Shown here one piece after another: positions 14,900-64,000 of a stretch of 64,000 bases of DNA (position 1 is the stretch's first letter; every line of letters starts with the position of its first letter). Both the position numbers and the translations under genes were made by a program. The stretch lies in the NCBI RefSeq assembly GCF_029633865.1, contig NC_079220.1:56581856-56645855 (forward strand). The letters are read 5' to 3'. Source of the stretch: Lampris incognitus. Its lineage: Eukaryota > Chordata > Actinopteri > Lampriformes > Lampridae. Under the pieces are notes generated by a model that was given only the letters and a program-made list of their open reading frames with translations, searched no databases and was not told the DNA's origin.

Positions 14900-17103
14900 G
14901 TGGCTTGGTGGTAACAGATGACTGGGATGACTGAGTAACAAGTAACTTGGTGGTAACAGATGACTGGGATGACTGAATAACAGGTAACTTGGTGGTAACA
15001 GATACTGGGATGACTGAATAACAGGTAACTTGGTGGTAACAGATGACTGGGATGACTGAATAACAGGTAACTTGGTGGTAACAGATGACTAGGATGACTC
15101 AATAACAGGTAACTTGGTGGTAACAGATTACTGGGATGACTGAATAACAGGTAACTTGGTGGTAACAGATTACTGGGATGACTGAATAACAGGTAACTTG
15201 GTGGTAACAGATGACTAGGATGACTGAATAACAGGTAACTTGGTGGTAGCAGATGACTAGGATGACTCAATAACAAGTAACTTGGTGGTAACAGATTACT
15301 GGGATGACTGAATAACAGGTAACTTGGTGGTAACAGATGACTGGGATGACTGAATAACAGGTAACTTGGTAGTAGCAGATGACTGGGATGACTGAATAAC
15401 AGGTAACTTGGTGGTAACAGATGACTGGGATGACTGAATAACAGGTAACTTGGTGGTAACAGATGACTGGGATGACTGAATAACAGGTAACTTGGTGGTA
15501 ACAGATGACTAGGATGACTGAATAACAGGTAACTTGGTGGTAACAGATGACTGGGATGACTGAATAACAGGTAACTTGGTGGTAACAGATGACTGGGATG
15601 ACTGAATAACAGGTAACTTAGTGGTAACAGATGACTGGGATGACTGAATAACAGGTAACTTGGTGGTAACAGATGACTGGGATGACTGAATAACAGGTAA
15701 CTTGGTGGTAACAGATGACTAGGATGACTGAATAACAGGTAACTTGGTGGTAACAGATGACTGGGATGACTGAATAACAGGTAACTTGGTGGTAACAGAT
15801 TACTGGGATGACTGAATAACAGGTAACTTGGTGGTAACAGATGACTGGGATGACTGAATAACAGGTAACTTGGTGGTAACAGATTACTGGATGACTGAAT
15901 AACAGGTAACTTGGTGGTAACAGATGACTGAGATGACTGAATAATAGGTAACTTGGTGGTAACAGATGACTAGGATGACTGAACAACAGGTAACTTGGTG
16001 GTAACAGATGACTGGGATGACTGAGTAACATAACTTGGTGGTAACAGATGACTGGGATGACTGAGTAACATAACTTGGTGGTAACAGATGACTAGGATGA
16101 CTGAACAACTGGTAACAGATTACTGGGATGACTGAGTAACAGGTAACTTGGTGGTAACAGATTACTGGATGACTGAATAACAGGTAACTTGGTGGTAACA
16201 GATGACTGGGATGACTGAATAACAGGTAACTTGGTGGTAACAGATGACTGGGATGACTCAATAACAGGTAACTTGGTGGTAACAGATGACTGGGATGACT
16301 GAATAACAGGTAACTTGGTGGTAACAGATGACTGGGATGACTGAATAACAGGTAACTTGGTGGTAACAGATGACTGGGATGACTGAATAACAGGTAACTT
16401 GGTGGTAACAGATGACTGGGATGACTGAATAACAGGTAACTTGGTGGTAACAGATTACTGGATGACTGAATAACAGGTAACTTGGTGGTAACAGATGACT
16501 GAGATGACTGAATAATAGGTAACTTGGTGGTAACAGATGACTAGGATGACTGAACAACAGGTAACTTGGTGGTAACAGATGACTGGGATGACTGAGTAAC
16601 ATAACTTGGTGGTAACAGATGACTGGGATGACTGAGTAACATAACTTGGTGGTAACAGATGACTAGGATGACTGAACAACTGGTAACAGATTACTGGGAT
16701 GACTGAGTAAAAGCTAACTTGGTGGTAACAGATGACTGGGATGACTCAATAACAGGTAACTTGGTGGTAACAGATTACTGGATGACTGAATAACAGGTAA
16801 CTTGGTGGTAACAGATGACTGGGATGACTGAATAACAGGTAACTTGGTGGTAACAGATTACTGGATGACTGAATAACAGGTAACTTGGTGGTAACAGATG
16901 ACTGGGATGACTCAATAACAGGTAAATTGGTGGTAACAGATGACTGGGATGACTGAATAACAGGTAACTTGGTGGTAACAGATGACTGGGATGACTGAAT
17001 AACAGGTAACTTGGTGGTAACAGATGACTGGGATGACTCAATAACAGGTAACTTGGTGTTAACAGATGACTGGGATGACTCAATAACAGGTAACTTGGTG
17101 GAA
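14900..17103 (+). repeat. 42-bp minisatellite, about 2.2 kb
   Basis: About 52 copies of a 42-bp unit: GGTAACTTGGTGGTAACAGA followed by TGACTGGGATGACTGAATAACA. Variants have TTACTGG, TGACTAGG or TGACTCAATAACA. A block with short and deleted units at about 15890-16110 recurs at about 16461-16690, a shift of 571 bases, showing recent segmental duplication. The unit length is a multiple of three, so the minus strand stays open and gives artificial CYHQVTCYSVIPVI-type peptides. Confidence 0.97.
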
Positions 17104-17170
17104 AGGATTATGAACCGAGCTGGAAAGCGGTGAACATTTTTTGGAAGAAGTACTGTGTTTATCGAACAGT

Positions 17171-17489
17171 CCAAAGGAATTGAATCGAGTGCAACTGGAC
17201 TTGGTATATAGCCGTGAAGACGTTTCGCCTCTCATGCAAGAGGCTTCATCAGTTCGTGCCTTTCTGACTAGACCAAGCTAGTCTGCACGAACGGAACACA
17301 AAGAGCCATGGACATCGTTAGCTCTGATAACGACTCCAAAGAGGATAAATATCTGAGTCTCATCACCAGCCAGTCAGACTAGCTTGGTCTAGTCAGAAAG
17401 GCACGAACTGATGAAGCCTCTTGGATGAGAGGCGAAACGTCTTCACGGATATATACCGAGTCCAGTTGCACTCGATTGAATTCCTTTGG
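17171..17489. repeat. Foldback element with 115-bp inverted arms
   Basis: The left arm (17171-17285) and right arm (17375-17489) are near-perfect inverse copies separated by about 89 bases. Each arm carries GTGAAGACGTTTCGCCTCTC and CTTCATCAGTTCGTGCC, or their complements. This hairpin-forming sequence is familiar as a dispersed fish repeat. Each arm also contains CTGATGA, a GCCTCT/AGAGGC stem and GAAAC, which looks like part of a hammerhead core (see findings). Its element family is not certain. Confidence 0.85.
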
Positions 17490-19800
17490 ATAACCATGAC
17501 CTGGATGAATGAGAGCATTCACAGACTTTATTGAACAGTGTATTCAAATATTTATTACCCTTTGGTTAAGGCAAGACAACTTTAAAAAAAACATGTAAAA
17601 ATATATTCTGTTAAAGAAATATAATGTTGTAAACATATTTACAGGTACATCACGGCTTCATTTAAAATCTAGTCCTCAGATACTGCAGATTGGACAAAAG
17701 TAAAAACCCAAACATGTTTACATCTTTACAAAACTTACAGCCGAGGTTCAAATTTCCTGCTAATGATGCGCAAGTTTTCTACCGAAGGAATAGCCGACAT
17801 ACTGCGAACAAGAAAGCATCGAGATACAAGTTTCTGAGTGATGTGCACAAAATGATATGTATAAAATATGCACAAAATAATGTGCACAAAAGGTGAAAAT
17901 TGCAGGGGTTTTTTTACAGTCAAAGGAAATACAGCTTATGTTTGAAGACAAAAATGACTGAGAACTTGTTGCTGTTGTTGCCTATCCAGAAGAACCCATA
18001 CAAGTTATTCTTGTGCGCCAAACCAGATGGGCATCATCTCAACTGGCTAAGCTGGCGACTTGTATACCAGCGATGGACCGAAGGACATGGCAGGTACTTC
18101 AACAATCACAGCTGTTGAATTTCAATGTTTCCCAACACGTAAGCCCTTCCTTCCCTCTTCCTCGTGTGGCCCCTGGACATCAACTGGCATCTCTGCCCAG
18201 CCCGGCATCTCTACCGCTGTAGGGTGGCCCGCATGTCTTCATAAACGTCACTGCCGTTGGTGCGTCTTGGTCTCACAACGGTGTAACTGGCCTTGATCTG
18301 ACACAACAGACATCATCATCATCATCATCATCATCATCACTTTAAAGGGTGTGCACTGTATGCCTACGTCATCAGAAAAGCAATGGTAACTTATGGGAAC
18401 AGCACACATTATGATTATCTGACCAGTGTTGTTATCGTTGTTAACACAGAAGGTCTCCTGTACGTAAGGACTTGATTTCCAAGTATATTTCACCATTTTT
18501 TTCTTTCCTAAGGATACAGGAATCCTTTGTATTCTCGAATTTCATAGTTTGTGTATAGTTTAGTAAACCTGCACCAAGAGCATGACATTTTCATTTACTT
18601 GTTAATTTGAAATCAGATATGACGCCTAACAGATATATGTGAGACAAAGACTCATGCAACGATGTCTAGTGTCCAACTTTATCTGTTTTGTTTTGTTTTT
18701 CTAAATAATTGAGTATATTAGATGTATAAAAACACAAATTATCCAGCAGGGGCTCAATCCTGTTCCCTACTCTCCCTGATCTCAGCCCATTTGTAGGCAA
18801 CCCACTCTCTCACCACCGAAACATGAGCCGAATCCCAGTTCAGTATGAACCACCTATATGGCTACACATTTAAATGGGCAGTAGCGGGTTTTTGAGATGA
18901 CGAGTGCTGGCATAGGCCTGCAGCTGACTGCTCGTTAAAAACTGAACAAAGAGAGGAGATGGCGTTGAGGGAGAAAATCTTTTTTCCCCCCAACGTCCAG
19001 TAGAAAATGCACTCTATGATCAACCCTCTCCGAACTGCCGACATAACACGGGTTCACCAAAGATGCCGGGACCCGCGTGATGCTGGCGACACGTGGGGTC
19101 CAGCATGCTGGACCAACAGCATATGAGGTGAGTAGGAGAGACGATGACCTAGGCTAACTAAACCCCCTGGTGGACTCGGGCTTGGTGGAGCGCCTGCAGC
19201 TCAGGAGTGGGATTCGTTGAACAGGATAAGCAGCAGTGGCTCATCAATGTGTGTAACACAGTGACATGAAATCCAAATGGATTCAGTCTGGCAAACTTCA
19301 TCCCTCTCATGCTGAAACACCGCAAAACAACGGACTTGGCCACAGCGCCGGCTGGTGGAGGGAGGGAGGGAGGGAGGCCATCATCAAACCCTTGCAATCA
19401 AATTGAAATCCAAATATCAAAGCCCAATTCACACAGAAAATTGTGGGGTTTGTTTTTTTTCTACAACCTTATTTCTTTTTTGTAGTTTTTGCCATCGTCC
19501 ATATTGGTTATGATTTTACTCAGTGGCTTCAATTTGGAGAGTTTGAACACGAGACCACCGGTAGAGACAGTTTTACAGATGTCTTGCAGGTCAACTGAAC
19601 ACGAGCACTAAACCTGTTCTTTCAACAACCGCAAAACCCCTGAGGTAGACTGTGTACATAATTTCCCGTTAACTAAGACTTCTCAACTGAGCTGGCTGGT
19701 AGTTTACGGATAAGTACTGCTACCCACCTGCAGGAAGAGCAGGCTGAGCTACTTCCTGCAAGCTAAACCAGGAAGTAGCTCAGCAATGCAATCGACCAAT
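17490..19800. other. Gene-free stretch downstream of the CD7-like gene
   Basis: AT-rich unique-looking sequence with no recognised exon. It holds a (CAT)n run at about 18311-18340 and a (GGGA)n run at about 19361-19378. The open frames on either strand are short and show no domain. Confidence 0.5.
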
Positions 19801-61486: not shown

Positions 61487-61517
<31 letters not shown>

Positions 61518-61579
61518 GCGCTTTTTTTCTGAAACCGTCAATGGTGTTGACAGAAGTGCTCAAATAATGAGGACAGGAA

Positions 61580-61733
61580 TATCAATACAGATGCAGGGGA
61601 AAAAAACATTTAATACATAGCAGTACACGCTTGTTTCGTGCGTTGCGCACTCATCAGCTGCTAATGTGCGATGCACGAAACAAGCTTGTACTGCTATGTA
61701 TTAAAAGTTTTTTTCCTGCATCTGTATTGATAT
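61580..61733. repeat. Foldback element carrying hammerhead sequences
   Basis: ATCAATACAGATGCAGG...ACATAGCAGTAC on the left and GTACTGCTATGT...CCTGCATCTGTATTGAT on the right are inverted arms, with hammerhead-like sequences back to back at the centre (61618-61696). (TA)n tracts flank it on both sides. The minus-strand arm keeps the ribozyme core. The plus-strand arm reads CTGCTAA in place of CTGATGA and is probably inactive. Confidence 0.85.
61618..61663 (-). ncRNA. Type I hammerhead ribozyme (minimal, short stem III)
   Basis: Minus strand, 5' to 3': stem I strand TAGCAG (61663-61658); core CTGATGA (61657-61651); stem II GTGCG-CAA-CGCAC (61650-61638); core GAAA (61637-61634); stem III CAAG/CGTG (61633-61626) with one mismatch and no loop; cleavage triplet GTA (61626-61624); stem I return strand CTGCTA (61623-61618), pairing perfectly with TAGCAG. 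All conserved core bases of the hammerhead family are present. Stem III is only four pairs (CAAG/CUUG in the sister arm, a palindrome). Such very short stem III is known from hammerheads in Penelope-like elements and retrozymes, which work best as dimers. Activity is inferred, not shown. The larger foldback could compete with this fold. Confidence 0.8.
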
Positions 61734-61745
61734 ATATATATATAT

Positions 61746-61826
61746 AATCCAGTGAGTCAAGTAAATTCTTTATGAGACCAGTCACGTAAAACTGTCTCAT
61801 AAAGAATTTACTTGACTCACTTGATT
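61746..61826. repeat. Second foldback, 33-bp arms
   Basis: Left arm 61746-61778 and right arm 61794-61826 are inverse copies with one mismatch (the inner 28 bases are perfect), separated by 15 bases. The core words are GTGAGTCAAGTAAATTCTTT and its inverse. It is bounded by (TA)n tracts and sits 12 bases from the first foldback. Confidence 0.9.
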
Positions 61827-61909
61827 ATTTTGCTCCTTATTTGTTGAGCACTATCCCTAATGTTGAGTGTTTCTTTTTAAAAAGTTATATATATATATAT
61901 ATATAAAGT

Positions 61910-63902: not shown

Positions 63903-64000
63903 TATCGCAGCCATACCGCTCCTTCTTTCTTTACAGATCAAGACGCTTCTCAGTTTGCAGCTTCGCACGACCCAACACACCAAGCTGCATCCTGCCACCG

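What the first reader, a model, noticed from the sequence alone, without database searches (positions are those of the whole stretch)
61618..61663. Complete hammerhead ribozyme on the sumo2 sense strand
All invariant core parts are present in order and with matching stems: CTGATGA, a 5-bp stem II with CAA loop, GAAA, a GTA cleavage site, and a perfect 6-bp stem I (TAGCAG/CTGCTA). This combination is most unlikely by chance. It lies 3.5 kb upstream of sumo2 exon 2 on the same strand, so if exon 1 is beyond base 64000 the ribozyme is transcribed inside a sumo2 intron. Intronic hammerheads are known in vertebrates, and hammerheads are known in Penelope-like elements and retrozymes. This one appears to have arrived with a dispersed fish foldback element.
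Basis: partly seen in the sequence, partly recalled or inferred. Interest (0 to 1): 0.9.

Follow-up and report, generated by a model that had tools for sequence, protein, structure and literature searches.

The report
Penelope retroelement hammerhead in inverted insertion
The ribozyme motif is real, but it is a leftover copy of the hammerhead carried by a common fish retrotransposon that looks Penelope-like, trapped at the tip of a long DNA palindrome, and it is unlikely to cut the sumo2 transcript.

Summary
In detail: minus strand 61663-61618 holds every invariant hammerhead (HHR) part, three stems and a GTA cleavage site. The same core occurs 1,373 times in the window's own 1.48-Gb genome, reversed control 0.

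It is not a lone intronic ribozyme. Of 30 core-bearing copies examined, 26 lack an inverted partner by my score, and several run upstream to different points. The best long copy (L124) has a 447-aa open frame with RT-like and GIY-YIG-like motifs, stopping 518 nt before its HHR. Head-to-head inverted repeats with a 'tail' on exactly one arm in 39 of 41 palindromes fit a Penelope-like element (PLE), a published carrier of minimal HHRs. Profile, PDB and fold searches did not confirm the protein.

The window copy is two short inverted cDNAs joined head to head. Folded with its left arm the HHR has computed probability 0, so cleavage of sumo2 RNA is unlikely. Rfam HH9 scores 22 bits, cut-off 52.

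Verdict: new member of a known kind. More interesting: the one-tail rule (P = 2.5e-11).

The parts
61618..61663 (-). hammerhead ribozyme motif (predicted cleavage between 61624 and 61623)
61579..61733 (.). palindrome: two short retroelement cDNAs head to head; HHR at the centre, right copy 61663-61579 (HHR strand), left inverted copy about 61664-61733, no tail on the left side
61520..61578 (-). optional 3' 'tail' of the right copy
61490..61519 (.). TA-rich repeat (probable target) beyond the tail
61734..61746 (.). TA repeat between the two inverted insertions
61744..61828 (.). second inverted pair, of a sister repeat family (family 2); both arms start at CTG(G)TCTC, the base after that family's predicted HHR cleavage site
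61829..61876 (+). probable tail of one arm of the second inverted pair (read 5'->3' on plus strand; outer end approximate)
   Evidence: the same sequence flanks the arm in L134
58001..58138 (-). sumo2 exon 2 (approximate ends), for the claim of position

Best explanation
[quoted passage not shown] The element RNA carries the HHR in its terminal repeat (pLTR). Reverse transcription starts a short way 3' of the HHR at one of two sites (giving copies with or without a 'tail') and runs either to an RNA 5' end just at the start of the HHR (short copies) or further up into the coding region (long, 5'-truncated copies). At the window locus two such short cDNAs were laid down in opposite directions in a TA repeat and joined at their 5' ends, which makes the palindrome with one HHR at its centre. 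Shown: the HHR consensus, copy number of the core, upstream sequence of differing length, loss of similarity at the HHR, one tail in 39 of 41 palindromes, variable junctions, coding motifs upstream. Inferred: PLE protein domains (motifs recognised from memory), two separate starts of reverse transcription, 5' end of the template at the HHR, cleavage activity. In the window copy the HHR is probably silent, because any transcript should fold into the long hairpin.
For: 1,373 exact core matches, control 0. The majority sequence of 41 palindromic copies is a complete HHR and 16 of 41 pass the full descriptor. Of the first 30 places of that core search, all on C1 (L051-L080), one served as reference (L071); 8 of the other 29 share 209-603 nt more upstream, with different starts, and 21 lose similarity within query 1295-1301, the 5' strand of stem I. 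L121/L122 share 867 bp ending in the HHR; L124 has a 447-aa open frame with YRDDG and CPLEGKCQTEGVIYQAS..TYVGLTEGPFKIRFN, stop 518 nt before its HHR. The protein end matched at 150 scored places of 3,109 candidates. Tail on exactly one arm in 39 of 41 palindromes (20 left, 19 right, 1 both, 1 none), tail in 11 of 30 core-chosen copies, P 2.5e-11 under independence. 33 distinct 14-mers before the core in the 40 palindromes that could be parsed. Flank at the no-tail end at least 80% A+T in 23 of 39. Published PLE anatomy agrees: inverted head-to-head pLTRs, tail optional on one of them, palindromic junctions (PMC3846280 passages); HHR in the pLTR, AT-rich targets, both DNA strands cut and extended, two RT start sites equal to the tail (PMC11167929 passages).
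Against: Pfam, NCBIfam and PDB sequence searches give no RT or GIY-YIG match and the fold prediction failed (pLDDT 31.5), so the protein identification rests on recalled motifs. No full-length copy was read; the longest candidate, L123, has a 5-kb run of N and its own HHR lacks part of CTGATGA. Rfam hammerhead score is below cut-off. Paired changes do not support the hammerhead stems. No target-site duplication was established, and 16 of 39 no-tail flanks are below 80% A+T. Both arms of a palindrome mostly carry the same variants (61 concordant double changes against 24 one-sided and 4 non-complementary at six pairs), which also fits self-priming from one template. Four of the 21 'boundary' copies (L059, L065, L068, L076) share another upstream sequence, so theirs may be a subfamily swap and not an end.
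Confidence: 0.85

Rival explanations
1. A palindromic DNA transposon (MITE) of Tc1/mariner-like type that multiplies as a unit and happens to hold a hammerhead at its tip.
For: Near-perfect palindrome, TA-rich flanks, 3,120 first-look candidates. The six pairs of non-CpG sites changed on both arms in six or more copies are mirror positions.
Against: 26 of 30 core-chosen copies have no inverted partner by my score and long ones carry coding sequence upstream. The tail lies on either side of the HHR orientation (20 left, 19 right) and junctions differ (33 distinct of 40), so palindromes formed many times.
Confidence: 0.05
2. Animal retrozyme: small non-autonomous type I HHR element spreading through self-cleaved circular RNA.
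For: Type I layout, short size, HH9 as best hammerhead hit; retrozymes occur in vertebrates (PMC7229834, abstract passage). Two palindromic units stand head to tail in L003 and cores point the same way 1.66 and 3.08 kb apart in L116 and L115.
Against: In the 30 loci of 3 kb a second intact core occurs in 8 (four distinct pairs) and always on the opposite strand. Coding frame upstream. 5' ends do not peak clearly at the cleavage site.
Confidence: 0.05
3. Domesticated intronic ribozyme that regulates sumo2, as proposed for RECK or CTCL introns (PMC6155905, passage).
For: Same strand, 3.5 kb upstream of exon 2.
Against: One copy of a family with over a thousand intact cores; hairpin prevents the fold in the computed ensemble; conservation at this locus could not be tested.
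Confidence: 0.03
4. Chance resemblance inside a palindrome.
For: Score below the Rfam cut-off. CTGATGA (7 of 279 changed) is no better kept than many arm sites. Stem I shows no compensatory change.
Against: 12 of 16.8 million simulated contexts; the null was not palindromic, so this may overstate. Two other repeat families of the same genome keep CTGATGA and GAAA in order.
Confidence: 0.05

Closest known systems
Hammerhead ribozymes of Penelope-like elements (Poseidon PAc of Anolis, PMC11167929; reviewed in PMC6155905; passages read of both)
   Same: HHR in the pLTR, minimal form, AT-rich target, two alternative 3' ends (tail), GIY-YIG/RT-like motifs upstream
   Different: Here a stem III of 3-4 bp with a small loop can be drawn instead of none; tail about 60 nt against 30-40; many copies are short; protein not confirmed
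Canonical endonuclease-containing Penelope elements of Adineta vaga (PMC3846280, passages)
   Same: Inverted head-to-head pLTRs, tail on one of them, palindromes at the junction
   Different: There very low copy number, with TSDs of 8-10 bp in several copies; here over a thousand copies and no TSD established
Rfam Hammerhead_HH9 (RF02275)
   Same: Core, GCAG/CTGC inner stem I, G-C closing stem II, C-G second pair of stem III
   Different: 22 bits against cut-off 52; no stem I internal loop of that kind; carried by a mobile repeat
Metazoan retrozymes (PMC7229834, passages and first part of Results)
   Same: Type I HHR in short repeats
   Different: Head-to-tail arrays not typical here (one pair seen, L003); long relatives with a coding frame

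Membership tests
Hammerhead ribozyme | Invariant core CUGAUGA, GAAA, U16.1 and H17 with stems I-III | tested here: met
Hammerhead ribozyme | Rfam gathering score | tested here: not met
   HH9 22.0 bits vs 52; no gathering hit in window; at best 25.8 bits when 20 of the 40 fetched copies were given
Hammerhead ribozyme | Compensatory changes in stems I and II | tested here: not met
   stem I: 0 double changes, 22 of 29 single changes unpaired; stem II: 7 double changes, only at two CpG-containing pairs; 41 copies. Copies decay after insertion, so this is a weak test
Hammerhead ribozyme | Self-cleavage at GTA | not testable with these tools
   needs RNA; genomic 5' ends near the site are suggestive only
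Penelope-like element (endonuclease-containing) | Reverse transcriptase of the PLE/telomerase type | tested here: inconclusive
   YRDDG and FDICEFYPSI seen in L124, recognised from memory; no Pfam/NCBIfam/PDB match; fold failed
Penelope-like element (endonuclease-containing) | GIY-YIG endonuclease at the C end | tested here: inconclusive
   GVIYQAS...TYVGLTE in L123 and L124, recognised from memory; no profile match
Penelope-like element (endonuclease-containing) | pLTRs often inverted head to head, tail optional on one of the inverted repeats | tested here: met
   39 of 41; definition from PMC3846280 passages
Penelope-like element (endonuclease-containing) | HHR in the terminal repeat | tested here: met
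   HHR about 425 nt (L121) and 518 nt (L124) after the stop of the frame; a 5' pLTR was not seen
Penelope-like element (endonuclease-containing) | Insertion in AT-rich DNA | tested here: met
   no-tail flank at least 80% A+T in 23 of 39; other flanks are other simple repeats or mixed
Penelope-like element (endonuclease-containing) | Short target-site duplication | tested here: inconclusive
   flanks printed for 41 copies; TA repeats hide duplications and none was scored
Metazoan retrozyme | Short head-to-tail repeats with HHR | tested here: inconclusive
   second cores in 8 of 30 loci (four pairs), all inverted; but one head-to-tail pair of palindromic units (L003) and same-direction cores in L115 and L116
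DNA transposon / MITE | Fixed ends and a palindrome that moves as a unit | tested here: not met
   two 3' ends, variable 5' ends and junctions

The most novel reading that the evidence does not exclude
The copies record how a Penelope-like element inserts: each inverted pair comes from two separate starts of reverse transcription, one at each of the two start sites (hence one tail per palindrome), on RNAs whose 5' end lies at the edge of an uncleaved hammerhead, with a minority ending at the hammerhead cleavage site. That would tie the one-tail palindromes of PLEs to two-sided target-primed reverse transcription and would argue against self-priming.
Probability: 0.35. Interest if true: 0.55.

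Novelty: new member of a known kind. Interest (0 to 1): 0.38.

Why it matters
It turns an apparent intronic ribozyme into a countable record of retroelement insertion. How PLEs insert and what their hammerheads are for are open questions; one published PLE did not need its HHR for insertion in vitro (PMC11167929, passage). A fish genome with over a thousand intact cores, and two more repeat families with HHR-like motifs, gives enough copies to ask where insertions begin and end and whether cleaved RNA is ever the template.

Tried and rejected
Tried without result: Rfam gathering scan; one DNA pattern in viral contigs (0) and genome contigs (1 hit, in Paenibacillus, taken as chance); HH9 over the own genome (one match, 21.2 bits, none over cut-off; the same search rings below cut-off in 11 of 14 control genomes). 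The searches of the own genome with RF00163 and PF01541 did not complete. Pfam, NCBIfam, PDB for the upstream protein; structure prediction (pLDDT 31.5, no fold search made). Open-frame listings of two inverted pairs (L111, L112) showed nothing useful.

Considered and rejected: selection on the core from its low divergence (7 of 279 in CTGATGA): many arm sites are as little changed. Covariation as proof of the hammerhead: double changes belong to the long hairpin (96 cells) and follow from both arms having one source; the hammerhead stems have 7, all in stem II at CpG-containing pairs. miRNA-like Rfam hits (mir-4524 and others) are below cut-off and expected of any long hairpin. A null of random palindromes was planned and not run.

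Left open: a peak of 5' ends at the cleavage site. CTGCAATG... occurs 562 times, 437 with GTA in front. Of the first 20 of the 125 without GTA, 10 keep a HHR with a changed GTA and 10 have none. Among 20 stretches fetched for places lacking CTGC, ends also fall 1-4 nt further on and several keep a HHR with a changed CTGC. The ends are frequent near the site but no sharp peak was shown.

Scripts that failed: (no result used); one search stopped with an error after printing the tail table.

Full report
What is there. On the minus strand at 61663-61618 the window reads TAGCAG CTGATGA GTGCG CAA CGCAC GAA ACA AGCG TGT A CTGCTA, a complete hammerhead: stem I of 6 bp (3 more after one bulged T), stem II of 5 bp, stem III of 3 bp, cleavage expected between 61624 and 61623. 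A descriptor scan finds it as the only case among 14 CTGATGA sites, and simulation puts chance at about 1e-5 (strict) to 2e-4 (loose) per window (the null is a first-order Markov sequence, not a palindrome). Rfam is lukewarm: no gathering hit, HH9 at 22.0 of 52 bits. Alone, the 46 nt do not have the hammerhead as minimum-energy fold.

Surroundings. The motif is the centre of a palindrome, 61579-61733. A second, different palindrome lies at 61744-61828, and TA repeats separate and flank them. sumo2 exons lie on the same strand from 58138 downwards; exon 1 was not found in the window.

Copies. The window's genome is held (1.48 Gb); the palindrome has 3,120 first-look candidates, of which 40 were scored. 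I fetched 40 copies and oriented them by the centre, a choice that favours the strand with the better HHR. With the window copy the majority sequence is again a complete hammerhead; 16 of 41 pass the full descriptor. GAAA is intact in 29 of 41 and AAAA in 10; CTGATGA is intact in 33 of 41. Six pairs of non-CpG sites changed on both arms in six or more copies, and all are mirror positions (10/148, 16/142, 27/131, 39/119, 48/110, 51/107). This is pairing of the long hairpin. Counted apart, hammerhead stem I has no double change, stem II has 7, stem III none with pairing kept.

What the element is. An exact pattern for the core gives 654 + 719 = 1,373 matches and 0 + 0 for the reversed control. 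I read the first 30, all on C1. By my score 26 of 30 have no inverted partner. Taking L071 as reference, 8 of the other 29 share 209-603 nt of further upstream sequence with different starts; 21 lose similarity within 7 nt at the 5' strand of stem I; four of these 21 share a different upstream sequence with one another. The longest copies end in a protein frame: L121 and L122 share 867 bp; L123 has the GIY-YIG-like part but a damaged HHR; L124 has 447 open residues with YRDDG, a C-x-C / CPLEGKC cluster, GVIYQA...TYVGLTE and a conserved end, then 518 nt, then the HHR. I recognise these as Penelope-like motifs from memory; profile, PDB and fold searches did not confirm them.

Anatomy that speaks for a PLE. 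Published canonical PLEs have inverted pLTRs joined head to head, palindromic junctions, and an optional tail on one of the inverted pLTRs (PMC3846280, passages). They favour AT-rich DNA; the Anolis PLE cuts and extends both strands, starts reverse transcription at two nearby sites that explain the tail, and carries an HHR (PMC11167929, passages). PLE hammerheads usually are minimal and lack helix III (PMC6155905, passages). Here: the no-tail flank is at least 80% A+T in 23 of 39 palindromes; there are two 3' ends, one with a tail of about 60 nt; and among 41 palindromes 20 have the tail on the left, 19 on the right, 1 on both, 1 on neither. With a tail frequency of 11 of 30 in core-chosen copies the chance of 39 or more one-tail palindromes is 2.5e-11. 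The side of the tail is not tied to the side that keeps the HHR, and 33 distinct sequences precede the core in 40 palindromes (post-insertion changes add to this number), so the palindromes arose many times, not by copying one palindrome.

How it works, most likely. The RNA starts at or near the HHR. Reverse transcriptase begins at start site 1 or 2, roughly 45 or 105 nt 3' of the cleavage site, and runs to the RNA 5' end, giving short copies; on RNA read through from an upstream copy it goes on into the coding region. When both target ends are extended, one from each start site, two cDNAs meet head to head and are joined, making a palindrome with one tail. All of this paragraph is inference from the copies and from the published Anolis PLE. 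Against two separate templates: arms share variants in 61 double changes against 24 one-sided ones, which self-priming from one template, the published proposal (PMC3846280, passage), explains as well; but I do not see how self-priming by itself gives one tail.

Function at this locus. Isolated with short flanks, the pairs of stems I and II have probability 0.82-0.94 except the first and last pair drawn for stem I (0.49, 0.37); with the left arm present the pairs computed have probability 0, also at seven growing 3' ends. The left arm is transcribed first in sumo2 sense, so the hammerhead should be outcompeted. I expect no cleavage of sumo2 RNA; this is a computed equilibrium statement, not a measurement.

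Cleavage in the record. If self-cleaved RNA were the usual template, copies would begin at CTGC. They mostly do not: 437 of 562 have GTA in front, and 19 of 21 family-2 places. Ten of 20 sampled copies without GTA have no HHR and begin about there, but ends also lie 1-4 nt on. A minority role of cleaved RNA is possible, not shown.

Literature. Searches of the held library for hammerhead with MITE and fish, with Penelope, with teleost and transposon, with inverted repeats and palindromes (25 of 922 papers listed), and with Penelope and fish genome showed no title or abstract start on this element; the key paper on PLE hammerheads (Cervera and de la Pena 2014) is not held, so novelty of the family is not established.

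Conclusion. Real hammerhead, ordinary origin: a PLE-type HHR in an inverted insertion. Interest lies in the one-tail rule and the boundary at the HHR, which are testable on the whole genome.

Noticed in passing
window 17170-17490: Inverted repeat (116-nt arms, 97%, 89 nt apart), each arm with CTGATGAAGCCTCT..AGAGGCGAAACGTCTTC, a hammerhead-like motif without helix III, as described for PLEs. The exact GG variant occurs 433 + 659 = 1,092 times in the genome, reversed control 0. Rfam gives no hammerhead hit there.
   Followed up: partly
window 61744-61828: Second inverted pair from another repeat family (1,150 + 1,203 pattern matches, control 0) with its own hammerhead-like stretch GACAG CTGATGA TTGCTTATGGCAT GAAAC AGGCTT GTA CTGTC; stem II starts with a T-T mismatch. 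The window arms begin at the predicted cleavage site.
   Followed up: partly
window 16800-17146: Tandem repeat of 42-bp units next to the 17-kb inverted repeat.
   Followed up: no
L059, L065, L068, L076: Copies of family 1 that share a different sequence just upstream of the HHR (...GCCAACTTG), perhaps a subfamily with another upstream part.
   Followed up: no
L003 1251-1721: Two palindromic units with tails stand head to tail about 250 nt apart.
   Followed up: no
L123 484-5483: A 5-kb run of N inside the longest apparent copy, so its 1,952-aa 'open frame' is mostly N.
   Followed up: no
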